Below, in pieces: positions 16,465-33,325 of a stretch of DNA of 64,000 nt. Source of the stretch: Chloropicon primus (lineage: Eukaryota; Chlorophyta; Chloropicophyceae; Chloropicales; Chloropicaceae); contig CP060755.1 in assembly GCA_023205875.1 (NCBI GenBank), forward strand, positions 1,302,001-1,366,000. The letters are read 5' to 3'. Under the pieces are notes generated by a model. That model was not told where the DNA came from. It did no database searches and worked only from the letters and a program-made list of their open reading frames with translations. Position 1 is the stretch's first letter; every line of letters begins with the position of its first letter. A program made the translations under genes and the position numbers.

Positions 16465-17157
16465 ATGGCTTTTGACGAGCATCTAGGCCTGAGCTTCCGG
16501 AAGGTGAAGCCAGAGGACGAGAGGGAGTTGCACCTTCTGCACAACGAGTGCATCAAGGAGATTTCGTACCCGGCTGAGTTCTTCTTCAAAGCGACTCACG
16601 GTTGCGAGGGTATAGAGGGCTGGGTCTGCACCACCGCCACTTCGGGGGGAAGGGGCGAGAGGCTGGTCGGATTTGTGACGGTTCAGGTGGCCTCGTCAAA
16701 CCACGTGGAAGGCAAGAGCCTCGTCGACTTCATTTTTCTCAGGCCTTCCGATCATCTTTACATCCTCACGCTTGGCGTTCAGGAGAAGTACCGACACTGT
16801 GGCGTCGCCACGAGGCTGTTGGATGAAGTAAAGCGGTACACGGCGAAAGTTTCGGTCGATGCGATTTACCTGCATGCACTGGCAAGCAACCACAAGGCGA
16901 TAAAGGTGAGTGGTGGAACCCCGGTTTGGACTCCATCTTTGTGTTCCAGAGAGACTCTGACCCCCTCGCCCCTGCAGTTCTACACGAAAAACCAGTTCGT
17001 ATGCCAGAAGAGGCTCACGGGGTTTTACACGTTGAACTCTTCTGAAGTGCACGATGGCCTGCTGTTTTGCTTCTCTCCCGCCAAGGCGCTAGCCCAAGCT
17101 TCGGATCAGTGCAGCCTCCTGCCTCTCTCCCTCTTCAGGAAGCTCTTGTGGTTTTGA
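16465..17157 (+). CDS. NAA60: N-alpha-acetyltransferase 60-like (NAA60) GNAT enzyme
   Basis: GNAT acetyltransferase, proposed exons 16465-16905 and 16978-17157 (206 residues). The 72-base intron (GTGAGT donor, CTGCAG acceptor) has no in-frame stop; removal joins LHALASNHKAIK to FYTKNQFVCQ, the conserved strand-helix of the family. The acetyl-CoA loop is RHCGVA (R-x-x-G-x-A) within VQEKYRHCGVATRLLDEV. The tail GFYTLNSSEVHDGLLFCF matches NAA60 rather than NAA50. NAA60 acetylates N-termini of membrane proteins facing the cytosol from the Golgi. The C-terminal end SLLPLSLFRKLLWF is hydrophobic and could be the membrane-binding helix. The start at 16465 is the first ATG and gives a typical short N-terminus. 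Confidence 0.85.
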   Translation: MAFDEHLGLSFRKVKPEDERELHLLHNECIKEISYPAEFFFKATHGCEGIEGWVCTTATSGGRGERLVGFVTVQVASSNHVEGKSLVDFIFLRPSDHLYILTLGVQEKYRHCGVATRLLDEVKRYTAKVSVDAIYLHALASNHKAIKVSGGTPVWTPSLCSRETLTPSPLQFYTKNQFVCQKRLTGFYTLNSSEVHDGLLFCFSPAKALAQASDQCSLLPLSLFRKLLWF

Positions 17158-17248
17158 TCCGGACGAGAAGAGGGCGAGAGTTCAATGGGTGTTCAGAGTA
17201 GTGTATCATAAAAAGAAATAGCAGACTTGCTTTACTGGTTACCCGAAA

Positions 17249-19279
17249 TCAACTTTTGGGGCCAATCATTCTCGTAAAAAGCTTTCTTGCCGCCCTTGTT
17301 CGGCTCAACTCCGCTTTCAACGCTCTCTTGAAGTTCAGCTGGATGTTCTTGAAAACTCGGGCGAAGAAGCCGAATACGCTCTTGATGAACAGGGCCAGTG
17401 GGGACACCCTCTGTTCTTTCGTGGGCTCATTCAAGTTGTATTGGTATTCAAGAGCTTTCCTCTCCTGCTCCGTGACACTTTGAAGCGATGCCCTTTGCTG
17501 ATGAAGAGCCTCGTCAGTTATGCTGCCCTCAATCGCTTCCTTTTCTGTCTTGGCCTGGAGGACCTCTTCCCTCAGCTGTTCGACCTCGTTGGCGTGCTTC
17601 TCTCTCAGCACAGCGAGCTCTTTGGTATGATCAGCTTTTGCGGACAAGAGGGCAGCATCAGACTGTGCTGAATTGGATTCCAAGGCCTTCTCCAGCTCCT
17701 CCCTTGAGTGCCGTTCGAGTCTCTCTTGCAGCGCAGAGAGAGCGTTCTCCTTCTCAGCGGCAAGCTGCTGCGTCAGCTCGGCCAGGGCCTTCTCCATCTC
17801 TTCCGAGGCAAAAGCCTCGAGAGACTCCTTTTGTTTCTCGAGCATCTCCGAGAGCTCAGTCGAAGTGGATTCCGAAAGGGAGATCTTCTGTTCAGCCAAG
17901 GCTCGCTCAAGCTCCTTGGCAAAATCCGCCTTCAGTGAAACCATCTGAGCATCAAGAGCGGACTGCAGCTCACTCTGGGCCTGGGTCTTCATCTCCTTCT
18001 CCAGGCTTGCGTTCGTTTCGGCTAGATTCTGCTGGTGTTCCTTTCCGAGTTGGGCCTTCTGCTCCCTCAACGCGAATTCCAACTTTGCGTCAAAGTCTTG
18101 CATCAACTTGCTCTGCTCCTTCTCCAAATCAGCCCTCAGCCTCTGTTCGAGCTCCGCTTTGAGCGTCGCGGAGAGTTCAGCCTTCCCGCCCTCGAGCTCA
18201 TCCTTCTGCTTCTCGAGGGCGGTCTCGAGGTTCTTGGTGTACTCAAGTTCGAGTTCCTTCTCCTTCTCCGCCAGTGCCTTGGCAAGCGTCTCCCCGCTCT
18301 CCTCCTCCATCGAAAGCTTCTGCTCCTCGAGGGCCCTCTCCTTGTCGCTCTCCGCAGCAGCGGCCTGCTCCGCGAGGGCGTCCCCGACCTGCTTCTTCTT
18401 CTTTTCTTCTTCCTGCCATTGTTGGTGCCTCTCCCGAGCCTTTTGCCTCATTTTCTCCTCTTCGCTCCTCTGCAGAAGGGTTCGCAAAAACGAAGCGCCA
18501 CCCCACAGTATTGACAACCCCCCAACCGCTACGGTTCCATCGACGATGGCGTCCTGGTTGTCGAAGAATCCGCCGCTATCCGGGGCGACGGCAACTCCCC
18601 CCAGGCTTTCGACGCGCGGTTGCGGCTCGGCGGGCTTGGGTTCCTCGGACGTCTGCTCCTGCACCACCTCCGCTTCCGCTGGAACCACCGGAGACTCGGC
18701 AGAGACGACGTCATCCATCGTCCCCGCCGGAGTCTGCACTGGAATCTCTGACACCTCGGGGATCTCGGGGAGTGCGGCTTCTTCCACCGAAGCGCCAGGC
18801 TCGCTCGGCGCGACTGCTTCCGCGTCGCCCCCCTCCTCGGAGACGGAGACCTCCCGGGGGGCAGCCCCCACTTCTGCGACGATGGCCTCCTCTTCCTCCT
18901 GCTTGGGCTTCATCCTCTCCATGAGAGCCTCCAACTGCTCTTCAGTTCGGGTGTCCTCCCTGAATTGCGCGCGCAGGAAGTTCGATTCCCCCTTGGCGTA
19001 ACGCTCCGCGTCGTTCTTGAGCTTGTTCGCCCTGGATCTCGCCAACATGTCTTCGACCGTCGGCGTCGCCTCCGCGTTGCGGGCGGTGCCGTAGCCCGCG
19101 AGGGTCACGAGAGCCCCCAGCAGCGGCCTCCTCCCCAACAACGCTGTCAACCTCTCCTCCACCCCCTCGATGTTCCTGATCCTTCCGTCCTTCCGCTCCG
19201 CTCTCACCGCCTTGAACCTGTCCCCGCGCCTGAGCCCCCGGCTCCCCGGCCTCCTCAGCCCCCCCGACGACGACTTCAT
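17249..19279 (-). CDS. coiled-coil membrane protein with Tat-like plastid targeting
   Basis: Protein of 676 residues in one exon. It begins with a basic, Ser/Gly-rich leader, then a twin-arginine-like signal at about residues 50-71: RR followed by PLLGALVTLAGYG and an AEA cleavage-like site. An acidic, disordered linker (about 100-240) precedes a membrane segment near 247-270 (VAVGGLSILWGGASFLRTLL), then a long charged coiled coil (about 285-630), and a basic, aromatic C-terminus (LFIKSVFGFFARVFKNIQL). Leader, hydrophobic segment, then coiled coil recalls the plant thylakoid protein MFP1, but only the architecture is shared; homology is not shown. The 5' part, up to just before the membrane segment, is duplicated at 19996-20753. 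It converges on the NAA60 gene. Confidence 0.75.
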   Translation of the reverse strand: MKSSSGGLRRPGSRGLRRGDRFKAVRAERKDGRIRNIEGVEERLTALLGRRPLLGALVTLAGYGTARNAEATPTVEDMLARSRANKLKNDAERYAKGESNFLRAQFREDTRTEEQLEALMERMKPKQEEEEAIVAEVGAAPREVSVSEEGGDAEAVAPSEPGASVEEAALPEIPEVSEIPVQTPAGTMDDVVSAESPVVPAEAEVVQEQTSEEPKPAEPQPRVESLGGVAVAPDSGGFFDNQDAIVDGTVAVGGLSILWGGASFLRTLLQRSEEEKMRQKARERHQQWQEEEKKKKQVGDALAEQAAAAESDKERALEEQKLSMEEESGETLAKALAEKEKELELEYTKNLETALEKQKDELEGGKAELSATLKAELEQRLRADLEKEQSKLMQDFDAKLEFALREQKAQLGKEHQQNLAETNASLEKEMKTQAQSELQSALDAQMVSLKADFAKELERALAEQKISLSESTSTELSEMLEKQKESLEAFASEEMEKALAELTQQLAAEKENALSALQERLERHSREELEKALESNSAQSDAALLSAKADHTKELAVLREKHANEVEQLREEVLQAKTEKEAIEGSITDEALHQQRASLQSVTEQERKALEYQYNLNEPTKEQRVSPLALFIKSVFGFFARVFKNIQLNFKRALKAELSRTRAARKLFTRMIGPKS

Positions 19280-19537
19280 GTCTGTCCCTCGCGAGCTCTC
19301 TCCAACTCCGTCCCCGGTCCCGTGCGCGCGCGCCTCAAGATCTTTTGAGCTCAGATCTTTGGATAGGGAAGCGCGCGAAAGGGCGGCATCAGGATCGCCC
19401 GCGGGATCGTCAAAGAGTCAGCAGTCGAGCATAGAAGAGTGGCAGGCTGAGATCGTTGATGGGCTGACAGAGGAGCTCAACGCCAGCAGGGCAAAGTATT
19501 TGGAGCTATTTCTTTCTGCAATCACACACCTATCTCA

Positions 19538-19991
19538 TCAGGAGGTCGCTGCCTTGAACTTAAACGTGTTTCTCTTCAGCCTGCTGACTTTGGGGACGCC
19601 CACGTTGGCGGAGGACGAAAGGCCAGCACCACCGCCCTTGGCTCCGATCGGCTTGTTCTTCGGTAGACCCGCTTCCCGGTTCGAGTTCTTCCTTGCGGAG
19701 AGTGGGCGGGTTCGTGGCACCTTGAAACCCTTGTAGTTGGCCTGCTTTGCCTTTTCCGTGGGCGATTCGTTTGCTCGGGCGTTGGCGTCCTCGTTGCTCG
19801 TGGCCAGGAACTCGTACTGATCGACTTTTGGTTCCGGGACGCCGGGACCCTCGTCGTCGTCGTCGTCCTCGAGCCCCCCCCCGCGCCCGTTCGAGTAGCG
19901 AGCGACGCACTCCTCCCCGTCATCTTCGGAGAGGAGAGAGCGCCCACCGGGCGAGCTCTCGTCCCTCTCCTCCTTCCCCATCCCCGCCCCG
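19538..19991 (-). pseudogene. partial copy: 3' end of the LRR gene
   Basis: This is the duplicated C-terminal part (about 150 codons) of the LRR gene at 21012-22952, starting within GGAGMGKEERD and ending at the same stop codon. It lacks the LRR region, start codon and promoter. Two neighbouring base differences change GGL to EF beside the DDDDDEG run. As it lies immediately downstream of a duplicated promoter and 5' gene copy, it may form the 3' part of a chimeric transcript. Confidence 0.85.
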
Positions 19992-20753
19992 CCCCCCAAC
20001 CGCTACGGTTCCATCGACGATGGCGTCCTGGTTGTCGAAGAATCCGCCGCTATCCGGGGCGACGGCAACTCCCCCCAGGCTTTCGACGCGCGGTTGCGGC
20101 TCGGCGGGCTTGGGTTCCTCGGACGTCTGCTCCTGCACCACCTCCGCTTCCGCTGGAACCACCGGAGACTCGGCAGAGACGACGTCATCCATCGTCCCCG
20201 CCGGAGTCTGCACTGGAATCTCTGACACCTCGGGGATCTCGGGGAGTGCGGCTTCTTCCACCGAAGCGCCAGGCTCGCTCGGCGCGACTGCTTCCGCGTC
20301 GCCCCCCTCCTCGGAGACGGAGACCTCCCGGGGGGCAGCCCCCACTTCTGCGACGATGGCCTCCTCTTCCTCCTGCTTGGGCTTCATCCTCTCCATGAGA
20401 GCCTCCAACTGCTCTTCAGTTCGGGTGTCCTCCCTGAATTGCGCGCGCAGGAAGTTCGATTCCCCCTTGGCGTAACGCTCCGCGTCGTTCTTGAGCTTGT
20501 TCGCCCTGGATCTCGCCAACATGTCTTCGACCGTCGGCGTCGCCTCCGCGTTGCGGGCGGTGCCGTAGCCCGCGAGGGTCACGAGAGCCCCCAGCAGCGG
20601 CCTCCTCCCCAACAACGCTGTCAACCTCTCCTCCACCCCCTCGATGTTCCTGATCCTTCCGTCCTTCCGCTCCGCTCTCACCGCCTTGAACCTGTCCCCG
20701 CGCCTGAGCCCCCGGCTCCCCGGCCTCCTCAGCCCCCCCGACGACGACTTCAT
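19920..20753 (-). CDS. chimeric frame: truncated copy of the coiled-coil gene fused to out-of-frame LRR DNA
   Basis: The second unit of the duplication carries the promoter side and first 254 codons of the coiled-coil gene, identical to 18518-19279. At the junction the frame passes into LRR-gene DNA in a different frame and ends after about 23 novel residues, for 277 in all. The predicted product keeps the leader, the Tat-like signal and the acidic linker but loses the membrane segment and the whole coiled coil. Whether it is expressed cannot be told. It may simply be a non-functional by-product of the duplication. Confidence 0.6.
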   Translation of the reverse strand: MKSSSGGLRRPGSRGLRRGDRFKAVRAERKDGRIRNIEGVEERLTALLGRRPLLGALVTLAGYGTARNAEATPTVEDMLARSRANKLKNDAERYAKGESNFLRAQFREDTRTEEQLEALMERMKPKQEEEEAIVAEVGAAPREVSVSEEGGDAEAVAPSEPGASVEEAALPEIPEVSEIPVQTPAGTMDDVVSAESPVVPAEAEVVQEQTSEEPKPAEPQPRVESLGGVAVAPDSGGFFDNQDAIVDGTVAVGGRGGDGEGGEGRELARWALSPLRR

Positions 20754-21011
20754 GTCTGTCCCTCGCGAGCTCTCTCCAACTCCGTCCCCGGTCCCGTGCG
20801 CGCGCGCCTCAAGATCTTTTGAGCTCAGATCTTTGGATAGGGAAGCGCGCGAAAGGGCGGCATCAGGATCGCCCGCGGGATCGTCAAAGAGTCAGCAGTC
20901 GAGCATAGAAGAGTGGCAGGCTGAGATCGTTGATGGGCTGACAGAGGAGCTCAACGCCAGCAGGGCAAAGTATTTGGAGCTATTTCTTTCTGCAATCACA
21001 CACCTATCTCA

Positions 21012-22952
21012 TCAGGAGGTCGCTGCCTTGAACTTAAACGTGTTTCTCTTCAGCCTGCTGACTTTGGGGACGCCCACGTTGGCGGAGGACGAAAGGCCAG
21101 CACCACCGCCCTTGGCTCCGATCGGCTTGTTCTTCGGTAGACCCGCTTCCCGGTTCGAGTTCTTCCTTGCGGAGAGTGGGCGGGTTCGTGGCACCTTGAA
21201 ACCCTTGTAGTTGGCCTGCTTTGCCTTTTCCGTGGGCGATTCGTTTGCTCGGGCGTTGGCGTCCTCGTTGCTCGTGGCCAGGAACTCGTACTGATCGACT
21301 TTTGGTTCCGGGACGCCGGGACCCTCGTCGTCGTCGTCGTCCTCGAACTCCCCCCCGCGCCCGTTCGAGTAGCGAGCGACGCACTCCTCCCCGTCATCTT
21401 CGGAGAGGAGAGAGCGCCCACCGGGCGAGCTCTCGTCCCTCTCCTCCTTCCCCATCCCCGCCCCGCCCCTCAGTCGCGCCCCGTCGTCCGGACCCGCGTC
21501 GCCTCGGCTTGGCCTCTTCTCCCCGGGACCCGGCTTGGCCTCCTCCACCGGGGTCTCCCTGAATGTGGCGACCTTGTGCTCCTGCTTGACGACTCCGATC
21601 ACGGGCGGCTCGGGAAGGGACGCAGTCAGCACCTCGCCCTCGGAGGCTTTGGCCATGCTCGCCACCTCATCCATGGGCAGCTCGAGGTTCTGCTTCATTT
21701 CCTTGAGAAGCTTGGTCATCTTCTGCTGGTAGCCAAACACCTGCTCCTCGAAAGCGAGGCTCTCCGCTTCGTACTGAACGGCCGTGAGGAGCCTGTTCCC
21801 TCCCCCCGCCCTCGCGGACATCGGCCTGGCTCCCGGCGTCGAGGACGCGGCGGGGTTTTGGGCGCTGGATGGCCTGGACGCTCCCATGGACCTCCTCCTT
21901 GGAGCGGGCGGCCTCGCGCCGGGTGGGGCTCTTGGCATGATCTTCCCCTCCTGTCCCGCCGCAGAGCTCGGTGGTGCTGGCCTCGGGGCCGAGCTCGCTT
22001 TCACGTCCCTGTCGTCCAGGCACTCCAAGCAGGGGAACATGTCGAGCGCTTGGGCCCTGTGCGCATCCTGGCCCCCCATCGCGAAAGGGTTGCCTTCCAC
22101 CTTGAGGTCCCTGAGCTCCTCCAGGGGGCTCAAGGCCTTGAGCGCGTCAATGTCGCACAACCTGTTTTTGCTCAGGTCGAGTATCTCGACGACAGGAAAG
22201 TTCTCGATCCCGACCAGGTCCTCGAACTTGTTCCCCGACAGGTAAAGCTCCGTGGCTTCCTCGAACCTTTTGCTCAAGTTCGAGAGGCTCGATATGCAGT
22301 TGTCCTCCACCCTAACGATGTCCAAGTCCCTGGCGTATTTTTCAATCCCCTTGATTGATTTGATCTCGTTGCCGCTGGCCTGGAACTCCTTGAGCTGGCA
22401 CGGGCTCACGGGGAGGCCCTTCAAGTCCCTCAGCTTGTTGTTGTTCAAGGAAAGCTGCTCCAGCTTGCCAAGACCCGAAAGCCCTTGCAGCTTCTCGATG
22501 CCGTTCGAGCTCAGGTCCAAGATTCGCAGGCAGGTCGGCAGACTGCCGGGCGATATGTCCTGCAAGTTATTAAACGCCGCGCTGAGCTCGTGCAGGAACT
22601 TGAGGTTCTCCAGCCCCTCGAAGCGCGTCAGCTTGTTCGAGTCGACGGACAGGATCTGGAGGTTCACGAGGTGGTGCACGCCGTGCAGGCTGTCGAGGTT
22701 ATTGTTGTAGAGTCTCAAAACTTTCAAGTTCTTCAGGTACCTCATGCTCACAAGGGACGTGACCAGATTGAACGAGAGGTCCAGCTTCCTCAGACTCGTG
22801 CACTCCTCCAGCACGCTGATGCCCTTCACCTGCCGGTTGTGGAACTCCAGGGAAGTCACCTTTTCTGGCTCCTCCCTCGTCTCCTCCATGATGAGTGCGC
22901 GCGTGAGCTCCACGCCCTTCTTCTCGTCCGCATCCTCCCTTTCCTCCCTCAT
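21012..22952 (-). CDS. SDS22-like leucine-rich repeat protein with disordered C-terminus
   Basis: Protein of 646 residues from the first ATG (22952); a GTG nine bases upstream is not needed. About ten LRRs of the short SDS22 type fill residues 30-310 (for example LRKLDLSFNLVTSL, LKVLRLYNNNLDSL, LEQLSLNNNKLRDL), closed by an LRR cap-like VEGNPFAM segment. The remaining half is Pro/Ala/Arg-rich, with an acidic EDDDDDEG run and a short helical part (VQYEAESLAFEEQVFGYQQK) near 390-420. No kinase, membrane or signal segment. Such proteins usually act as scaffolds, including for PP1 or in cilia, but no specific orthologue is recognised. Its 3' part is duplicated next door. Confidence 0.8.
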   Translation of the reverse strand: MREEREDADEKKGVELTRALIMEETREEPEKVTSLEFHNRQVKGISVLEECTSLRKLDLSFNLVTSLVSMRYLKNLKVLRLYNNNLDSLHGVHHLVNLQILSVDSNKLTRFEGLENLKFLHELSAAFNNLQDISPGSLPTCLRILDLSSNGIEKLQGLSGLGKLEQLSLNNNKLRDLKGLPVSPCQLKEFQASGNEIKSIKGIEKYARDLDIVRVEDNCISSLSNLSKRFEEATELYLSGNKFEDLVGIENFPVVEILDLSKNRLCDIDALKALSPLEELRDLKVEGNPFAMGGQDAHRAQALDMFPCLECLDDRDVKASSAPRPAPPSSAAGQEGKIMPRAPPGARPPAPRRRSMGASRPSSAQNPAASSTPGARPMSARAGGGNRLLTAVQYEAESLAFEEQVFGYQQKMTKLLKEMKQNLELPMDEVASMAKASEGEVLTASLPEPPVIGVVKQEHKVATFRETPVEEAKPGPGEKRPSRGDAGPDDGARLRGGAGMGKEERDESSPGGRSLLSEDDGEECVARYSNGRGGEFEDDDDDEGPGVPEPKVDQYEFLATSNEDANARANESPTEKAKQANYKGFKVPRTRPLSARKNSNREAGLPKNKPIGAKGGGAGLSSSANVGVPKVSRLKRNTFKFKAATS

Positions 22953-23154
22953 CTTGCACACAGGGACGAGGACGACGCCTTGGTCGACACCACAGAAGAC
23001 TACTAGTCCTTGACGAAGCTTTCACCTCGGCATTCAAAAAAAAAGAAAGCTTGTTGTGTGCAACAACATTTCCCAAAATTTCGAAACCTGTGACGGATTG
23101 GCACATGACATTGGCAAGCCTTGGCTCTTGGCTCTTCCTTCCGGGCCCGGTGAC

Positions 23155-23190
<36 letters not shown>
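23155..23190. repeat. (GAT)12 trinucleotide repeat
   Basis: Twelve uninterrupted GAT units lie between the GLDC stop codon and the LRR gene start, both minus-strand genes. They are non-coding on present models. Confidence 0.95.
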
Positions 23191-23191
<1 letters not shown>

Positions 23192-23217
23192 GGATGATGG
23201 GTGAACTTGTTAACCTG

Positions 23218-23222
23218 TTACA
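23218..23222 (-). terminator. candidate TGTAA polyadenylation signal of the glycine decarboxylase gene
   Basis: On the minus strand TGTAA occurs 24 bases after the GLDC stop codon, in AT-rich spacer DNA. Confidence 0.5.
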
Positions 23223-23246
23223 ATTAAATCGAGGAAAAGTGGTGGC

Positions 23247-26200
23247 TTACTCGGCCTGGGCGTACGCAGAAATATCGTCGCAGCAGAGCGTGGTCTGCAA
23301 GTTCCTGTCCCCGAAAACGTTGTCAACCCTGCTAGTGGTGGGCCAGAACTTGAAGTCCTTGAGGTAACCAATAGGGAAGGCAGCCATCTCTCTCGAGTAT
23401 GGGTGCTCCCACTTCTCAGCCATGACAACATCCTGGGTGTGGGGGGCGTTCTTAAGCGGGTTGTTGACAGGGTCAAGCTGGCCTGACTCGACCATGGCGA
23501 TCTCCTTGCGGATGGCGATCATGGCGTCGCAGAACCTGTCCAACTCGTCCTTGGACTCACTCTCGGTTGGCTCGACCATCAGGGTGCCGGTGACAGGCCA
23601 GGACATGGTCGGGGCGTGGTACCCGTAGTCAATGAGCCTCTTGGCAATGTCCTCGGCCTCGATGTTGGCGCTGTCCTTGAAAGGTCTGACGTCCAGAATG
23701 AACTCGTGAGCAACCGTGCCGTTCTCCCCCTTGTAGAGAATCTCGTAGTCCTCGGACAAGCGAGAGGCCATGTAGTTGGCGTTGAGGATGGCGTGCTCAG
23801 AAGCCTTGGTCAGTCCCTTGCTTCCCATCATGACCAGGTAGGCGTAAGAGATCGCGAGAATCAAAGACGAGCCGTGCGGAGCCGCGGCCATGCAACCGAA
23901 AGGCTTCTTCTCATCGACGGCAGGCATCGCCCCGGTTGGGACGACAGGGTGGGAGGGCAAGAAAGGAGCCAAATGGGCCTTGACTCCGATTGGTCCCATG
24001 CCTGGGCCACCACCTCCGTGAGGGATGGCGAAGGTCTTGTGAAGGTTGAGGTGGCAGACGTCAGCCCCGATGAGTCCTGGGCTGGTGAGTCCCACCTGGG
24101 CGTTCATGTTGGCACCGTCCATGTAGACCTGGCCCCCGTTGTCGTGGATGATCTGGCAGATCTCGTCGATCCTGGACTCGTACACCCCGTAGGTGGACGG
24201 GTAGGTGACCATCAGGGCCCCGAGGTTCTCGGCGTTCTTCGCGACCTTTACCTTCAAGTCCTCGATGTCGACGTTCCCCTGGGCGTCGGTCTTGCAAGTC
24301 ACGATCTTCATTCCCGACATGACGGCACTGGCTGGGTTGGTTCCGTGAGCAGAGACAGGGATGATGCACACGTTCCTGTGGTAGTCACCGTTGTTCCTGT
24401 GGTAGGCCCTGATGGCCATGAGGCCGGCATACTCCCCGGATGCGCCACTGTTCGGCTGCATGGACATCGCGTCGAATCCCGTGACCTCGCACAGAATGTC
24501 GGCAAGGTTCCCGATCATCTCCTTGTATCCCGCGGCCTGGTCCTCTGGGGCGAAGGGGTGCATGTTGGCGAACTCCCCCATGGTGATCGGCATCATCTCA
24601 GAGGTCGCGTTGAGCTTCATGGTACAAGAACCCAAAGGAATCATCGAGTGGCACAAGGAAAGATCCTTGGCCTCGAGCCTGGCCAGGTACCTGAGCATCT
24701 CGTGCTCGGAGTGGTACGTGTTGAACACGGGGTGGGTCAAGAAGTCACTGGTTCTCTTGAAGCCCCCGGCGTTGCAGGTCACGCCCTGCGCGAGGGACTC
24801 GGCGGTGAACGAGGCCGACCCGCCGGAGAGGACGGAGAAGAGCACGTCCACGTCCTCAAGGGAGGAAGTCTCGTCGAAGGCGATGGACACGTGGCTCTCG
24901 TCCAGCTGCCGGATGTTGTACCCCTTGGCGACCGCGGCCTCGACGACTCCGGCAGCCTTGCCGCCGCCGACGTTGACGGAGACGGTGTCGAAGAAGAGGT
25001 CGGACTTGACGCTCATGCCGAGCTCCTTGGCTCCCGCGGCCAGGATGCCGGCGAGCCCATGGACTCTGCCCGCGATCTGCTTCAGGCCCTCAGGGCCGTG
25101 GTAGACGGCGTACATGGCGGCGATGTTGGCGAGGAGAGCCTGAGCCGTGCAGATGTTCGAAGTTGCCTTCTCCCTCCTGATGTGCTGCTCGCGGGTCTGC
25201 ATGGCCATGCGGAGGGCAGGGTTCCCGTGCTGGTCGATGCTGGTTCCGATGACGCGGCCGGGCATGATCCTCTTGTACTCCTCGGCGGTGGCCAGGAAGG
25301 CGGCGTGGGGGCCGCCGTACCCCATGGGGACGCCGAAGCGCTGGGAGGACCCGATGGCGATGTCGGCGCCGAGCTCACCCGGGGGGGTGAGCATGGTCAA
25401 GGCCAGGAGGTCGGTCGCCATGACGACCTTGGCGTTCACGGCGTGCGCGGCGTCGATGACCGAGCCGTACTCGTTCAGGGAGCCGTCAGTAGCGGGGTAC
25501 TGGAGGAGGACCCCGCACACGTCGTTCCCGCTGAAGTCAAAGTCGGCCTCGGGGGACACGACGCACTCGAGGCCGAGCCCTTCGGCCCTCGAGGTGCACA
25601 CCGCGATGGTCTGCGGGTGGCACTTGTCCGAAACCAGGAACTTTGGCTTCTTGCCGTTGGCCTTGGCGCTGCACATGGTCATGGCCTCGGCGGCGGCGGT
25701 GGCCTCGTCCAGGAGGGAGGCGTTCGCCATGGGGAAGCCGGTCAGGTCGGTGATCATGGTCTGGAAGTTCAGGAGGGACTCCAGCCTGCCCTGGGAGATC
25801 TCGGCCTGGTACGGGGTGTACTGCGTGTACCAGCCGGGGTTCTCCAGGAGGTTCCTGAGGATCACCGTCGGCGTCAGGGTGCCGTAGTACCCCATCCCGA
25901 TGAAGTTCTTGTTCACGACGTTCTTGCTCCCGAGCTCCTGCATGTGCTCGAGGAACTTGTTCTCCGTCATGGCCTCGGTAAACTGGCCCAGGTCCAGCTC
26001 CGTCTGCTTGCGGATGTGGGTGGGCACGGTCTTGTCGATGAGCTCCGAGAGCGACTCGAACCCGCAGTCCTTGGCCATCTTGCCCTCGATGCACGCCGGG
26101 GCGTTGCTGATGTGCCTCGGGATGAAGCTAGAACGGAGAAGAAGAAGAACCCAGGGAGAGGAGAGAGAGAGGGAGAGGAGGGGGTGTCAGTGGTTGCGGT

Positions 26201-26624
26201 CGCCAAAGACGCGGTTGGTTACGCTTTTTTCGTGTGCGTGCGCGGGGCGTGAGCGTGAGCGACGACCACAGAAGATACAGATAAGACGGATCTCGTTGTG
26301 GCGACAGGGTTGGTTGTTGCCCTCGGGAGTCTCGTACGAGAGCAAGGAAGAAGCGAGAAAACACGGGAGGAAGCACAGTTCCCCCAAACCGATCGAGGGT
26401 CCGCCCTGGAACCCGTCCCCTCACCTGTCGCTCGGCCTCAAGCTCTCCACAGAGATGGATCTCCCGGTCTGGACGTAGCCATTGCTCTTGGCCAACGCCA
26501 ACGCCCCCGCGGTCGTCAGGTTGTACTCCTCCGCCGGCCTCGCCGCGATCCTCGCAACGGGAGACAGGGAGGTCTTCCCCCTGCGCGTCAGCACGCGCGC
26601 CACGGCACTCGCCACCATGGACAT
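23247..26624 (-). CDS. GLDC: glycine dehydrogenase (decarboxylating), P-protein of the glycine cleavage system
   Basis: PLP enzyme that decarboxylates glycine and passes the aminomethyl group to H-protein in mitochondria; in algae it serves photorespiration and C1 metabolism. Exons are complement 26425-26624 and 23247-26127, giving 1026 residues. The 297-base intron (GTGAGG donor, TAG acceptor) joins SVESLRPSD to SFIPRHISN, the conserved N-terminal junction. Residues 1-35 are basic and Ser/Ala-rich, as in a mitochondrial presequence. The PLP lysine lies in [20 protein letters not shown]; the two homologous halves typical of the eukaryotic single-chain enzyme are both present ([12 protein letters not shown] early; [19 protein letters not shown] midway). 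Very secure. Confidence 0.97.
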
Positions 26625-27406
26625 CTTCCCTCTCTTGGAACTTCACGAGCAGCGTCCCAGCTCTCGCGAAAACACCACGTTTGGTTTCGGGCCTCGTCAC
26701 TCCCTTCCCCTCAGCCACAGATTTAGATTCCCCTTCTTGTTCTCTCTGGGTGAGGATCAGGTGTTCGTGGATGTCGCTGGCCTGGACGGAAAAATCTTAG
26801 CGAAAAGAAATCTCGAGGGAAATCCAGAGAGGGGAGGATCCCTAGGGGAGGATCCTGGAGGAGGATCCAAAGTAGTACTCCCACAAGCGAGAGTATATAC
26901 AACACACTCCCTTCCTTCTCCGGCCAAACCAAACCAAACCAAACATCCTTTTTCTTTGCCTCCTCCATTTTTCCTTTCTCCTTCCCTTTTTTTTCCTTTT
27001 TCCTTTGTTTGACCGTTGCATTCGATATCGTATTTCCTTAAGTGAACCCCAAGGTCTGCAGTTCTCCCCTTGGAGACAAAGGACGCGCGCAAGAAGAGAG
27101 GTCTCCCTCTCCCTCTCCCTCTCCCTCTCTCCGTATTTCTTCTTCTTTCTGTGATTTCATGAGGGAAGAACAAGACTCAACTGTATTGTTCAAGGGGAAG
27201 GGAAGTCATCGTCGTCGTCGTTGCGCGCGCGCGTGTGTCTCTCGCTCTCGCTCGCTCGGTCAGTCGACTCCGCCTGTCTCGTCGTCGACTGGAATGAGAT
27301 ACAGGTGCCGCGAGTGAAGCCGAACAAGACGGTGTGACAAAGACAGGACGACGGGACAAGAGTATCCCTCGCGAGGAGGGATTTGACTGCTACGACTAGG
27401 GGCAGA
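26625..27406. other. divergent intergenic region between GLDC and the IQ/WW gene
   Basis: This 782-base spacer contains a palindromic GTATATAC near 26893-26900 that could serve as a TATA element for either strand, four AAACC units at about 26926-26944, T/C-rich low-complexity DNA and CCCTCT repeats near 27100-27130. I see no coding region or RNA gene. Confidence 0.5.
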
Positions 27407-30400
27407 ATGAACCAGAGCGTAAGTGTGGCTTCTCTCTGGTAGAGTCCGGGAATCCTCTCCCCTGACGCTGGAACTGACACGGACCTCTCTCTCTCGTCTC
27501 GTCTCGTCTCTCTTGTCTGACGGCAACAGATGCAATCGATATACGGGGTCGCGAGAAAGGGGGGGGAGTCTGACCCCCACCCCCACTCGAGCGGCAACAA
27601 TGGCGGAGTCCCCCGAAGCCTGCTCACGAGCTCGAACAGGGGGGTGATCTACCAGCAGAGGGGGATAGGGAGGCAAATCAGCAGCTGGCTCCTGGAGCCC
27701 GTCAAGCTGCAGGGGAACAAGGAGTCCGCCGCCTCGAGCACCTTGGGGTACGCCGTGGACATAAAGAAGTCCTTGCCCAAGCTCGGCCTCGCGGACCAGG
27801 CAAAGCAGGCCAAGGGAAGGTCCTCGGTGTCCAAGGGCGGCGGGGCCGCGGCGGCGGCGGGGGGCACGGTTCTCCCCTCCATCTCGGGCAAGCTGAACCC
27901 CTACAGGACCTCGGACATCAAGTTCTTGAAGAAGCAGAACAACCTCGAGAAGGGGCAGAGGGACAACTGGCAGGGAAGCTCCCCGGGAAAGCGGAAGAAG
28001 GTCAAGCGCAGCAGGACCCCGCCGAAGAAGCAGACCAGGCTGCAGAGCAAGGTGGAGATCTACAGCACGAACGCCGTGAAGAGCCGGCCAAAGCCCGCCA
28101 AGGTTGGGGCCTACAAGCCCGCCAGGAAGCAGAAGGGCCAGGCCCTGCCGAAGACGTTCCACACGTCCAACCTCGCGACCAGGGCCAAGCTGCTGACGGC
28201 GTTCCTCCGGCAGTCCGCGCAGAACGTGGACCTGCTGGAGGACACCCTCCAGTTCATCTCGTCGGAGACCAAGCACGACATCCTGATGAGACACGCCCAG
28301 CTCCTGGTGAGCCACCAGTACTACTTTTCCAGCATCCGGATTGCCCACCAGCAGCAAGATTCCTTGGGCACGGTGCTCCAGGACCTGATGCAGAGGATAA
28401 CGGGCAGCATGCAAGGGGGGTCCACGGTGAGTCGAAAGTGGAAGTGGAACCTCGTGGACCACGAGCTGTTTGTCAGGCAGTTTGGCGATCTGAAGATCGT
28501 CCAGCAGTACCGGGGGGTGAGAAAGAAGTTGCTGGGCATGGGCGAGAACGGCGTGGTCGCGCTCGCGAGGGTCGAGAAGGAGATCTTGCTCAAGGTGGTC
28601 AGCGATTTCATGGAGCAGCTCTCTTTGCCGTCCTATCCAAAGGCCGTGGTCTCCGAGCTCATGAAGGAGGAGACCGGAGCGTCCGCCGTCCAGGAGGAGA
28701 ACGTCCCCGAGGAACCAGCCAAGGCGGATGCAGAGGAATTCTCCCTCCAGGCATCCAAGAGGGCACAGCCAGTCAAGCAACAGCCGGCCGTCTCCGCACC
28801 AGGGACGGCGGAGAAGGGAGCACCGCCAACGGAAGGAGAACGGAGGCCACCCTCCCCGCCGATCGAGACGGGGGAGGTGGCCGCTCCCTCTGCGGAGAAG
28901 AGCTGGCAAGAGATCGAGAAGGAGAGGCTGGAGGAAGAGATGAGAGCAGTCAGGGAAGAAATGGGTGACGGGGAAAAGTCGGAGAAGGAGAAGGAAGTGG
29001 AGACTCCCGCAAAGGTGGAGCCCGCCGCAGAGGAGGAGTCTAAGAAGTCGGAACCTCCTGCGGAAGCGACCCGTGCGGAGGAGGAGGACCCCGCACCTGC
29101 TGGGACCGAGGCTGCAGTGGAAGCGGAAAAGCCTGCCGCAGAAGAAGCTTCACCCCCACCACCGGCACCACCACAGGTGGATGAGCCGGCACCGCCGCCG
29201 CCGCCACAGGATGTGGCCGGGCTCGCTCCTCGCCCCCCTCCTCCAGCAGAAGAGGCTGCCGCTCCTGTGGAGCCGGTCTTGTCTGAGAGGGAATTGCTTG
29301 AAAAGGAAAGAGAAGCCATGCAGAGGGAATTGGAAGAGCTCGAGAGAGAGGAACCCGATGCGCGAGCGGAGGCGGCCACCACCCCTGCCAAGGAGGCAGC
29401 AGAGCCTGAACCAATTGTACCACCAGTAGAAGAATTGAAGAAGAAGGAGGAGGAGGAGGAGGCAGCGAAGAAGGCCAAGGAGGAGGCGGAAGCCAGGGCA
29501 AAGGCGGAAGCGGAAATGGAGGCCTTGAAGAAGCAGGAGGCGGAAGCAAAGGCTGCAAAGGACGCCAAGGAAAAGAAAGAGAGGGAGGAGATGGAGGCCA
29601 CGAAGAGGAAAGAGGAGGCCGAAGCAAAGGCCGCCAAGGAAAAGAAGGAAAGGGAGGAGATGGAGGCCATGAAGAGGAAGATGGAGGCCGAAGCAAAGGC
29701 TGCAAAGGCGAAGGCCGAGAAGGAGGCCGCCGAGAAGGCGAAGGCCGAGAAGGCGAAGGCCGAGAAGGCGAAGGCCGAGAAGGAAGCCGCCGAGAAGGAG
29801 GCGAGGGAAAAGGAAGAGCTGAAGAAGAAACAGGAAGCTGAAGCAAAGGCCGCCAAGGAAAAGAAGGAGAAGGAGGAGCAGGCTGCGGTAAAGATCCAGA
29901 GCAAGGCTCGTGGAATGTTGGCCAAGAAGAAGGTCAGCGAGAAGAGAGAGGCCAAGAAGGAGGAGCAGGCTGCGATCAAGATCCAGAGCAAGGCTCGTGG
30001 AATGCTGGCGAAGAAGAAGGTCGGCGAGAAGAGAGATGCCCAGCGCGCTCAAATCGAGAAGGAGAACCTGGCCAAGAAGCCCGAGCCCGAGTCTGAGGCC
30101 AAGCCTGAGCCTGAAAAGCCTGAAGCTGATGATCTTGATGACATTGAAAAGCTTCGGGAGCAAGCTCTTGAGGAGCAGAAACGGATTGCTAAAGAGGAGG
30201 GCGTGGACTTCGAAAGCACGCTCACGAAACCAGTTGAGGAGACGCGAGAAGTGGCCGCACCTGTTGCCTCGGCTGTTGATATTGCGCCCCCCGCCGAGGC
30301 TAGTCCTTCCCCGATTATTGCCTCGGCTGCACCTGTGCCCGAGGAAAAGCCTAAGCCCATCGAAAGGACGTTTGAGGACGTCGTAGCCTTGGAAGAGGAG

Positions 30401-31249
30401 AAGCAGGAGAAGGCTGAGCAAGACATTGAGCAGGCCATCAAGAAAATGAGGGAGGAGATGAGGCAAGAGAAGGAGCGCTTGAGGAAGGAGATGGAGGAGA
30501 AGAGGAGGAAGTTGCAAGAAGCCAGGCAGCGAAAGCGTGAGTCTGCTACTTGGAAGAAGACTCCGATCACTATCTCAACAGAGAGCCCCCTCAAGGCCGA
30601 CAAAGAGCCTTCGAAGCTCACCGAGGCGATCCAGGAGGAACCTGAACCGGTCAAGGAAGAAGAGCGGCCTCCACCATTGTCAGTGATGAAGCCCGAACCG
30701 GTACCCATCATGCGGCCAGCTGAAGTTCCAAAGCCGAGGGAGCCAGAAGCCCCGAAGGCTTCCTTTGAGAAGGAAATCCATCAAGCCTTGCAGCATGTCC
30801 AGGAGCAGCTGGCAATGCAGCAACAGCAGTTCTTGCAGATGCAATTCACAAACATGCAGATGACCCCCGGAGGGCCAATGCCAACCCCCCTGGTGAGAGG
30901 TGGCATGCCAATGAACCCCATGATGACTCCCCTGAAGGAAAATGCCATGGCAACCCCAGGCATGCAACAGATGGGCCAAGCTGCGAACAACAATCCTCCA
31001 ACACAAGAGGAAATCAACGAGTACGCTGTCTATTTGGGAATGGACCCTGTTGCAGACAAAGATCTGTTGTACATTGCGGAGTGGGCTCTGTCTGCTCCCC
31101 TTCCGGAAGGTTGGACGGAACACGTGGATACGTCAGGCAACGAGTTCTACTTTAACAGCATGACTGGTGTATCAACTTACGAGCATCCCCTTGATGGTCA
31201 GTTCCGAGAGTATTATAGGCAAATGAAAATGCAGAACGCCCAGAGGTGA
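27407..31249 (+). CDS. large IQ-motif and CEP164-like WW-domain protein
   Basis: Proposed exons are 27407-27418 (MNQS) and 27530-31249, giving 1243 residues; the 111-base intron has a GTAAGT donor and CAACAG acceptor. If the first exon is wrong, ATG 27530 starts the main frame. A helical domain (about 220-390) is followed by a very long low-complexity region rich in Pro, Glu, Lys and Ala. Two IQ motifs (AAVKIQSKARGMLAKKK and AAIKIQSKARGMLAKKK, about 788-832) could bind calmodulin. A coiled coil follows, then a Met/Pro-rich stretch. Near the C-terminus EEINEYAVYLGMD leads into a WW domain (LPEGWTEHVDTSGNEFYFN, then YEHPLD). That helix-plus-WW unit is the one known from the N-terminus of centriolar CEP164. 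Location at a basal body is inferred only. Confidence 0.8.
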
Positions 31250-31271
31250 AAGGCGATGGCGCCGCACGGAG

Positions 31272-31276
31272 TGTAA
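31272..31276 (+). terminator. candidate TGTAA polyadenylation signal of the IQ/WW gene
   Basis: TGTAA lies 22 bases after the stop codon within the 87-base gap to the convergent HRD1 gene. Confidence 0.5.
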
Positions 31277-31336
31277 AATAGTTAACGTTTGGAAATACAT
31301 GCTCATATGATGATGAACCACATTATTTTTTTTTGC

Positions 31337-33325
31337 TCACGGGGAGAACCTGTTAAGTCGTCTCTGCCTCAATTCATTCACTTCCTCACTTCCAGAATCC
31401 CCAACAATGCCAATCCGCGGAGTGGATGGTGGGCTTGACTCCTCTGTCTCAGTCTCCGTTTGGGGCAACAGAGGTTCTTCATCCCCAGCAATTTCGTCGT
31501 CTTCAGGATCGATTTGATCGTCTTCAGCATCATTCTCGTTCCTTCTTTCGCTATCAGCGGGGGCAGGGTTGGCATCACTCGTGCTGGGACCTCCCTCTTC
31601 TTGCCGTGGGGAGTCTTGAAGTGGGTCCTCCTGTGGCCGAGGTGGCGGCTCTTGCGGATGCGAAGGCGACCCCATGTTCTTCAGCTGTTCTTGCAATTGC
31701 TGGAGTTGCTCTTGCATCGCAGCCAATTGCTGCTGTTGTTGCACTTCAGTACCTTGCTGAGCCCTCACAGCTGCTTGTGCTGCCGCCATGGCCATCGCAT
31801 GCTGCTCCGGTGATGGCATCTGAAATGCCGGCATAGGAGGAGGAAATGGTGCCGGCATAAGAGGTACCACGCCATAAGGGTTCTGGTACCATAAGGGTGG
31901 TGAGTGCGGCCCCATGCCTTGTCCCCCCATATCCATATTAAATCCTCCAGCCATTGGACTGAAGCCTCCGGCCATTGAATTGAAGCCTCCAGCCATTGGA
32001 TTGAAGCCGCCAAAGCCAGCGTTTCCAAGATTGCCGGGGCTGGAGTCAGTATCTCTCCCCATTCCCCCCTGTTGTGTCGCACTTGGAGGGATGCCCTGCT
32101 GCTGCTGTTGCTGCTGCTGAGGCGGGGCATCTCTTCTCTGACTGCCTGGAGGCGCTCCCGGGTGAGCTGCAGGGCGTGCCTGAGGCTGCTGTGGCACCTC
32201 TTCCCGCGGCTGCTGCTGCTGCTGCTGTTGCAGCGGAGGCTCCCGGGGGGCTTGGGGGGCTTCCGGCTGCTGAGGTTGCTCGGGCTGTGCCACTGGTGGC
32301 GCTTGTGGCACGCGAACTGGAATCACCGGAGTCCTGCACATGGGGCACGTCTGCTGCCTCTCCAGCCACGACCGCAAGCAGTTTGCATGGAAGATGTGGC
32401 CGCAGTGGAGCTTCTTCGCAGCGCCAGCAACCATCTCCTCCCTGCAAATGATGCAAACCGAGTTCTCCCCGATCTCCTCCGCCGTGGCGTCCTCGAAGTT
32501 CTCATTCATGTTCGTAGTGATCCTTCTGTACTTGATGAAAGCCACGAGCTTGTTCTTGAAGTTCTTCATGGACCAGTACAAGTCCCTCAGAAGGTGGAAC
32601 GGCAGCCCGTAGTACACGAAGATGATGCAGAAGAAGATGGAGTACACCGCCAGCTGGAAGAGTTCCGTCACAAGGTCCAGGTACAAGGCGCAGATGCTCT
32701 TCCCCGTCCAGTTGCCTTGGTAAAACTTGTCCACCCAATAGAACAGGTACTTCACAGAGAGCTTGATGCAACCTGTGGCCAGTATGATGTACTCGAAGGC
32801 AAACAACAGCAACACGCTTGGGCCCTGGCTTGTCATGTCTATTATGGCTTCCCTGAGAAACAGAATATCGACCAGGAGCAGGCCCGCGATGAGGGAGGAG
32901 CACCTAAAGTGCTGCGAGGCCGTTATGTTTGGCGAGGTCTCGAGGAACTCCACCCTGTCCGAGGACAGCCAGTGGAACACTTTGAGGAACAACAGGAAGG
33001 AGAAGTACCTGATGAACGAAAAGCTGAATTCCTCCCGGAATATCGTCATCGCTATGCACATCTCCATGATCGTCTCCTTCATTCTATCTTGCAGACGCTC
33101 CACCTCGCTCTCCCGAAGCTGCCCCAGGAAGGTCGCCTTGATGGCCTTCCCCAGGCAAAGCATGAAGCTCAGGGCCAGGTTACCCAAAACCACGAGAAGA
33201 ATTTTGCTCGTGGTCAGGAGCACCATCGTCGGATAAAGTTGCTGCTTGATGGTCCATGCGTGCAGAATGGCGGCAGCCGCTACCGTCACGCTCGCGGCCG
33301 CGTACTTCGTCAGGGTGAGCACCAT
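31337..33325 (-). CDS. HRD1: HRD1/synoviolin-type ER E3 ubiquitin ligase
   Basis: Membrane RING ligase of ER-associated degradation, 662 residues, one exon. Several hydrophobic helices fill residues 1-245 (for example SVTVAAAAILHAW, ILLVVLGNLALSFML, SFIRYFSFLLFLKVFHW, LAVYSIFFCIIFVYYG). The RING-H2 finger occupies residues 291-330: CIIC, then CGHIFHANCL and CPMC, with all eight zinc ligands. The C-terminal half is cytosolic and disordered, rich in Gln and Pro, with repeated GGF(N/S)(S/P)MAGGF units near 430-460. HRD1 ubiquitinates misfolded proteins retro-translocated from the ER. The stop codons of this gene and the IQ/WW gene converge 87 bases apart. Very secure. Confidence 0.95.
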   Translation of the reverse strand: MVLTLTKYAAASVTVAAAAILHAWTIKQQLYPTMVLLTTSKILLVVLGNLALSFMLCLGKAIKATFLGQLRESEVERLQDRMKETIMEMCIAMTIFREEFSFSFIRYFSFLLFLKVFHWLSSDRVEFLETSPNITASQHFRCSSLIAGLLLVDILFLREAIIDMTSQGPSVLLLFAFEYIILATGCIKLSVKYLFYWVDKFYQGNWTGKSICALYLDLVTELFQLAVYSIFFCIIFVYYGLPFHLLRDLYWSMKNFKNKLVAFIKYRRITTNMNENFEDATAEEIGENSVCIICREEMVAGAAKKLHCGHIFHANCLRSWLERQQTCPMCRTPVIPVRVPQAPPVAQPEQPQQPEAPQAPREPPLQQQQQQQPREEVPQQPQARPAAHPGAPPGSQRRDAPPQQQQQQQQGIPPSATQQGGMGRDTDSSPGNLGNAGFGGFNPMAGGFNSMAGGFSPMAGGFNMDMGGQGMGPHSPPLWYQNPYGVVPLMPAPFPPPMPAFQMPSPEQHAMAMAAAQAAVRAQQGTEVQQQQQLAAMQEQLQQLQEQLKNMGSPSHPQEPPPRPQEDPLQDSPRQEEGGPSTSDANPAPADSERRNENDAEDDQIDPEDDEIAGDEEPLLPQTETETEESSPPSTPRIGIVGDSGSEEVNELRQRRLNRFSP

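What the first reader, a model, noticed from the sequence alone, without database searches (positions are those of the whole stretch)
18518..21469. Near-perfect 1474-bp tandem duplication that fuses two genes while keeping both parents whole
Two copies differ at only two of about 1474 positions seen by eye. The segment spans the 3' end of an LRR gene, the spacer and the 5' end of a plastid-type coiled-coil gene. Because it covers one end of each gene, the outer parts still rebuild both complete genes, while the middle holds an internal junction with a duplicated promoter. The boundaries and the junction all lie in C runs, suggesting microhomology-mediated repair or replication slippage. It is either a very young structural variant, a chance to watch gene birth, or an assembly artefact.
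Basis: seen in the sequence. Interest (0 to 1): 0.72.

Follow-up and report, generated by a model that had tools for sequence, protein, structure and literature searches.

The report
Young tandem duplication, out-of-frame chimeric gene
In the assembled genome of a tiny marine green alga, a 1,474-base stretch straddling two neighbouring genes appears twice in a row, leaving both genes whole and creating a truncated hybrid reading frame between them; this is a known kind of mutation, and whether it is real, on one or both chromosome copies, and active still needs sequencing reads.

Summary
Window 18518-19991 and 19992-21465 are head-to-tail copies (1476 of 1478 aligned bases identical), with 4 bp (CCCC) shared at the breakpoints. 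Both parent reading frames are intact. The middle junction is out of frame: the chimeric ORF (19920-20753, minus, 277 aa) is residues 1-254 of the coiled-coil protein plus 23 new residues; no LRR protein sequence is added. The retained N-terminus resembles the alga's own photosystem I subunit PsaN, including its targeting region. The spacer also holds a 143-bp piece, 142 of 143 identical to the inside of a chromosome-15 reading frame, in both copies, so it preceded or accompanied the duplication. Best reading: a recent, real tandem duplication made by microhomology-assisted repair or template switching, possibly heterozygous, giving a complete-looking but probably non-functional chimeric transcription unit. 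Chimeras made this way are known from Drosophila. An assembly artefact is not excluded: neither reads nor the sister strain CCMP1205 were available here.

The parts
18518..19991 (.). Copy 1 of the 1474-bp unit (match runs on to 19995)
19992..21465 (.). Copy 2 of the unit (match runs on to 21469)
19992..19995 (.). CCCC shared by the left and right breakpoints (4-bp microhomology) at the internal junction; equivalents 18518-18521 and 21466-21469
17249..19279 (-). Whole coiled-coil parent ORF, 676 aa; PsaN-like N-terminus (aa 20-105), hydrophobic stretches near aa 244-268 and 625-643, long coiled coil
21012..22961 (-). Whole LRR parent ORF, 649 aa from a GTG (first ATG three codons in), SDS22-like LRRs
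19920..20753 (-). Chimeric ORF, 277 aa: coiled-coil protein residues 1-254 plus 23 out-of-frame residues from LRR DNA
19538..19991 (-). Duplicated 454-bp 3' end of the LRR gene, without its own 5' end; would serve as 3' UTR and terminator of the chimera; holds both copy differences
19280..19537 (.). 258-bp spacer, copy 1 (LRR 3' flank and coiled-coil gene promoter side)
20754..21011 (.). 258-bp spacer, copy 2, upstream of the chimeric ORF
19366..19508 (+). 143-bp fragment, 142/143 identical to the inside of a contig-15 ORF (C15:254043-254185, minus), copy 1
20840..20982 (+). Same 143-bp fragment in copy 2

Best explanation
A real, young tandem duplication of a 1474-bp segment running from inside one gene, across the spacer, into its same-strand neighbour. 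Repair or template switching at a 4-bp CCCC match between the two edges joined the end of one copy to the start of the next. As the unit holds the 5' end of the downstream gene and the 3' end of the upstream gene, both outer genes stay complete and the middle becomes a full-looking transcription unit: coiled-coil gene promoter and first 254 codons, 23 out-of-frame codons, stop, then LRR 3' end. It may sit on one homologue only. Shown: the repeat, the breakpoints, the intact ORFs, the out-of-frame chimera. Inferred: that it is in the cells, the repair route, transcription. The chimera probably has no selected function yet.
For: 1476/1478 identity and exact head-to-tail junction; 4-bp breakpoint homology, reached by 2.0-2.6% of random breakpoint pairs; both parents uninterrupted; assembly from Nanopore reads with Canu, then Nanopolish, Pilon and visual comparison with SPAdes contigs (passages), and the array (2.95 kb) is short for such reads (inference); species is diploid and the other strain, CCMP1205, carries 73 indels over 100 bp found by PacBio mapping; Drosophila tandem duplications across gene boundaries make chimeras of the same layout (passages).
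Against: No reads, depth, RNA or second strain could be examined. Two near-identical copies longer than a short-read insert are hard to polish, so the two differences may be errors. Homology of 4 bp is common enough to be chance in C-rich DNA. No other duplication above 180 bp period was seen in 274 kb, so this is not shown to be a habit of the genome.
Confidence: 0.7

Rival explanations
1. Assembly artefact: overlapping contig ends or two haplotypes were laid end to end during assembly or manual curation, so the second copy does not exist.
For: Diploid, heterozygous source and manual curation of the consensus; copies almost identical; two differences would fit two haplotypes or polishing noise.
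Against: An end-to-end join of overlapping contigs predicts no breakpoint homology, yet 4 bp are shared (2.0-2.6% by chance). At 0.20 heterozygous sites per kb the expected haplotype difference is 0.29 sites in 1474 bp; 2 or more has P about 0.036, though two changes 2 bp apart may be one event. Both arguments are weak.
Confidence: 0.2
2. An older duplication, fixed in the species, kept alike by gene conversion between the adjacent copies, so that identity understates its age.
For: Adjacent direct repeats are good substrates for conversion (general knowledge); the two differences cluster within 3 bp.
Against: Nothing here requires conversion; no outgroup was available to date it.
Confidence: 0.08

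Closest known systems
Chimeric genes from tandem duplications that cross gene boundaries, Drosophila yakuba (PMC5460883, passages)
   Same: A tandem duplication joins the 5' end of one gene to the 3' end of its neighbour and leaves the parents in place.
   Different: Here a single case in a haploid-consensus algal assembly; out of frame; no expression or population data.
Microhomology/microsatellite-induced replication (MMIR) duplications in yeast (PMC2518615, passages)
   Same: Direct duplication with short breakpoint homology in low-complexity sequence.
   Different: That work describes 5-10 bp of homology or microsatellites, far larger segments, and Pol32 dependence; here 4 bp, 1.5 kb, genetics untestable.
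Templated insertions at DNA breaks (PMC11724301, PMC8421209, abstracts' beginnings in a search listing)
   Same: The 143-bp chromosome-15 piece in the spacer is a short copy of a distant locus that still has its original.
   Different: Empty site unknown, so the insertion junctions cannot be examined.

Membership tests
Chimeric gene by tandem duplication across gene boundaries | Head-to-tail duplication with one edge inside each of two genes | tested here: met
Chimeric gene by tandem duplication across gene boundaries | Parents intact and 5' end of one gene joined to 3' end of the other | tested here: met
Chimeric gene by tandem duplication across gene boundaries | Protein-level fusion of both parents (not required for the class, but implied by the finding's title) | tested here: not met
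   Chimeric ORF ends after 23 out-of-frame residues; 246 hypothetical GT-AG introns could rejoin the frames but none starts with one of five strong donor hexamers chosen from recall
Chimeric gene by tandem duplication across gene boundaries | Transcribed | not testable with these tools
   no RNA reads
Microhomology-mediated duplication (MMIR/MMBIR type) | Breakpoint microhomology | tested here: inconclusive
   4 bp present; 2.0-2.6% chance; shorter than the 5-10 bp of the yeast work
Assembly false duplication | No spanning reads; halved depth | not testable with these tools
   no reads held
Templated insertion (spacer fragment) | Copy of a distant locus with the original still in place | tested here: met
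   C15:254043-254185, 142/143 identical, in frame inside a 422-aa ORF, flanks unrelated
PsaN (photosystem I subunit N) for the coiled-coil protein | Whole-domain match to the PsaN profile | tested here: not met
   Only profile positions 25-80 of 132 match, 21.9 bits against a cut-off of 21; the alga's real PsaN is on contig 1 with 120.5 bits

The most novel reading that the evidence does not exclude
A new plastid gene caught at birth: the chimera keeps the PsaN-like targeting region and acidic linker but drops both downstream hydrophobic stretches and the coiled coil, so if translated it would be a short soluble protein sent to the thylakoid lumen from a duplicated promoter, segregating on one homologue of a clonal diploid.
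Probability: 0.07. Interest if true: 0.55.

Novelty: new member of a known kind. Interest (0 to 1): 0.25.

Why it matters
If real it is a clean, dated example of how a duplication across a gene boundary makes a chimeric transcription unit without cost to either parent, in a compact diploid green alga with a second sequenced strain for comparison. Copy divergence of 0.14% (95% range 0.016-0.49%) is about 1.4 million generations (0.17-5.1 million) at the Ostreococcus tauri rate of 4.79e-10 per site per generation, with no gene conversion. The general principle is already established, so the interest is modest.

Tried and rejected
In-frame fusion protein: rejected. Mobile element: rejected as the cause; the unit occurs only at these two places apart from the 143-bp piece, and Rfam found nothing at gathering threshold in 17000-23500. 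Larger family of such chimeras: the coiled-coil protein's other genomic matches (8 of 10 rows) cover only its coiled coil (residues 294-600), and the LRR protein's remaining rows are 24-37% identical LRR matches. A relative in viral contigs: one 30-base exact pattern, 0 matches, but near records may be left out of that collection. A long DNA query (window 21470-33000) did not even list its own locus, so it was not used as evidence of absence. The junction pattern occurs once in the assembly, which says nothing about reads. Solved structures: LRR protein matches generic LRR proteins, the chimeric ORF none at E 0.01. A rate paper held no matching passages. Presence in CCMP1205 could not be tested: its genome is in none of the collections I could use.

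Full report
Where it is. The window is contig 2, 1,302,001-1,366,000, of a 17,584,162-bp genome in 20 contigs. That total, the number 20, the longest (1,855,637) and shortest (417,210) contigs equal Table 1 for Chloropicon primus RCC138 in PMC12301720 (section read). The strain is mostly diploid with 3,441 heterozygous sites (0.20 per kb). Passages of that paper say it was assembled from Nanopore reads with Canu, polished with Nanopolish and Pilon, and compared by eye with SPAdes contigs. The identification rests on these matches, not on a name given by a tool.

The observation. Copies at 18518-19991 and 19992-21465 match at 1476 of 1478 positions without gaps. Both mismatches lie within 3 bp beside a C run in the LRR 3' part. 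The edges share CCCC; of 200,000 random breakpoint pairs across the window, 2.0% share 4 bp or more, and 2.6% of pairs near the real edges. The homology therefore fits repair or slippage but does not prove it.

Genes. The minus-strand coiled-coil ORF (17249-19279, 676 aa) and LRR ORF (21012-22961, 649 aa) are both complete. These are ORFs, not annotated models; no RNA was seen. The unit holds 762 bp (254 codons) of the first, the 258-bp spacer and 454 bp of the second. The junction ORF (19920-20753) is 254 residues of the coiled-coil protein plus RGGDGEGGEGRELARWALSPLRR. Because the unit holds a promoter side at one end and a 3' end at the other, the middle looks like a complete transcription unit; that it is transcribed is inference.

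What the chimera keeps. The coiled-coil protein's N-terminus matches Pfam PsaN marginally (21.9 bits, cut-off 21; 24.9 for the chimera; 25.9 in the genome search). The alga's own PsaN, on contig 1 (120.5 bits), aligns to residues 20-105 with score 91 against a maximum of 54 in 500 shuffles. The alignment includes a hydrophobic segment after two arginines and ending near AEA; that this is a Tat-type lumen signal is recalled knowledge of PsaN, not a test. The cut at residue 254 falls in a moderately hydrophobic stretch (Kyte-Doolittle 1.3-1.4 over 19 residues near 244-268; the usual membrane threshold of 1.6 is recalled), so calling it a membrane helix is tentative; the strongest stretch, 625-643 (1.59), is also lost.

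A second scar. Spacer positions 19366-19508 and 20840-20982 are 142/143 identical to C15:254043-254185, where the piece lies in frame within a 422-aa ORF of coiled-coil character. Flanks on both sides are unrelated. Contig 15 is the likely donor. Since both copies carry it, the insertion came before the duplication or with it. It makes up 143 of the spacer's 258 bp, so it may have altered the coiled-coil gene's promoter; untested.

Is it usual here? In 274 kb, arrays with period of 100 bp or more are 161, 163, 173, 179, 180 and 1474 (6 rows of 31 found by TRF at score 100 and periods to 2000). BLAST (100 bp or more, 80% or more) adds a 175-bp pair with a 33-bp gap, non-adjacent repeats in L032 and L037, and short-period arrays. 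So 1474 is the only large adjacent duplication seen in this sample; 274 kb is 1.6% of the genome.

Real or not. For artefact: diploid source, manual curation, no reads. Against: breakpoint homology, and two differences where 0.29 haplotype differences are expected (P about 0.036). Both are weak. In CCMP1205, PacBio mapping found 73 indels over 100 bp, and in that strain's assembly long alleles were put into the consensus; large heterozygous indels are thus usual in the species, and this may be one in RCC138.

Known or new. Passages of PMC5460883 describe 76 chimeric genes from tandem duplications in 15 D. yakuba lines, including one uniting the 5' end of one gene with the 3' end of its neighbour. 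The present case is of that kind. I ran no search for this locus in print beyond the genome papers' passages; neither paper's passages that I saw mention it.

Noticed in passing
L031 4462-4901 and 8239-8594, L028 4626-5061, L035 7790-8149, L004 1508-1852: In 274 kb, five of the six tandem arrays with period of at least 100 bp have periods of 161-180 bp (2.0-2.7 copies, 96-99% match), about one nucleosome repeat; cross-BLAST found no similarity among them. A recurrent size class of young duplications?
   Followed up: partly
19366-19508 and 20840-20982; L004 5044-5186: 143-bp copy of the inside of a chromosome-15 reading frame sits in the spacer on chromosome 2.
   Followed up: partly
17249-19279: The coiled-coil protein itself looks like an older chimera: a PsaN-like targeting and N-terminal region on a coiled-coil protein.
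   Followed up: partly
L037 95-1863 and 4582-6350; L026 3757-5782: A 1769-bp perfect direct repeat 2.7 kb apart, with about 92-99% similar sequence of the same tile on another chromosome; probably a dispersed element.
   Followed up: no
29555-30040: Diverged internal repeat (about 74% identical, with 60-87 bp tandem periods) inside long open frames.
   Followed up: no
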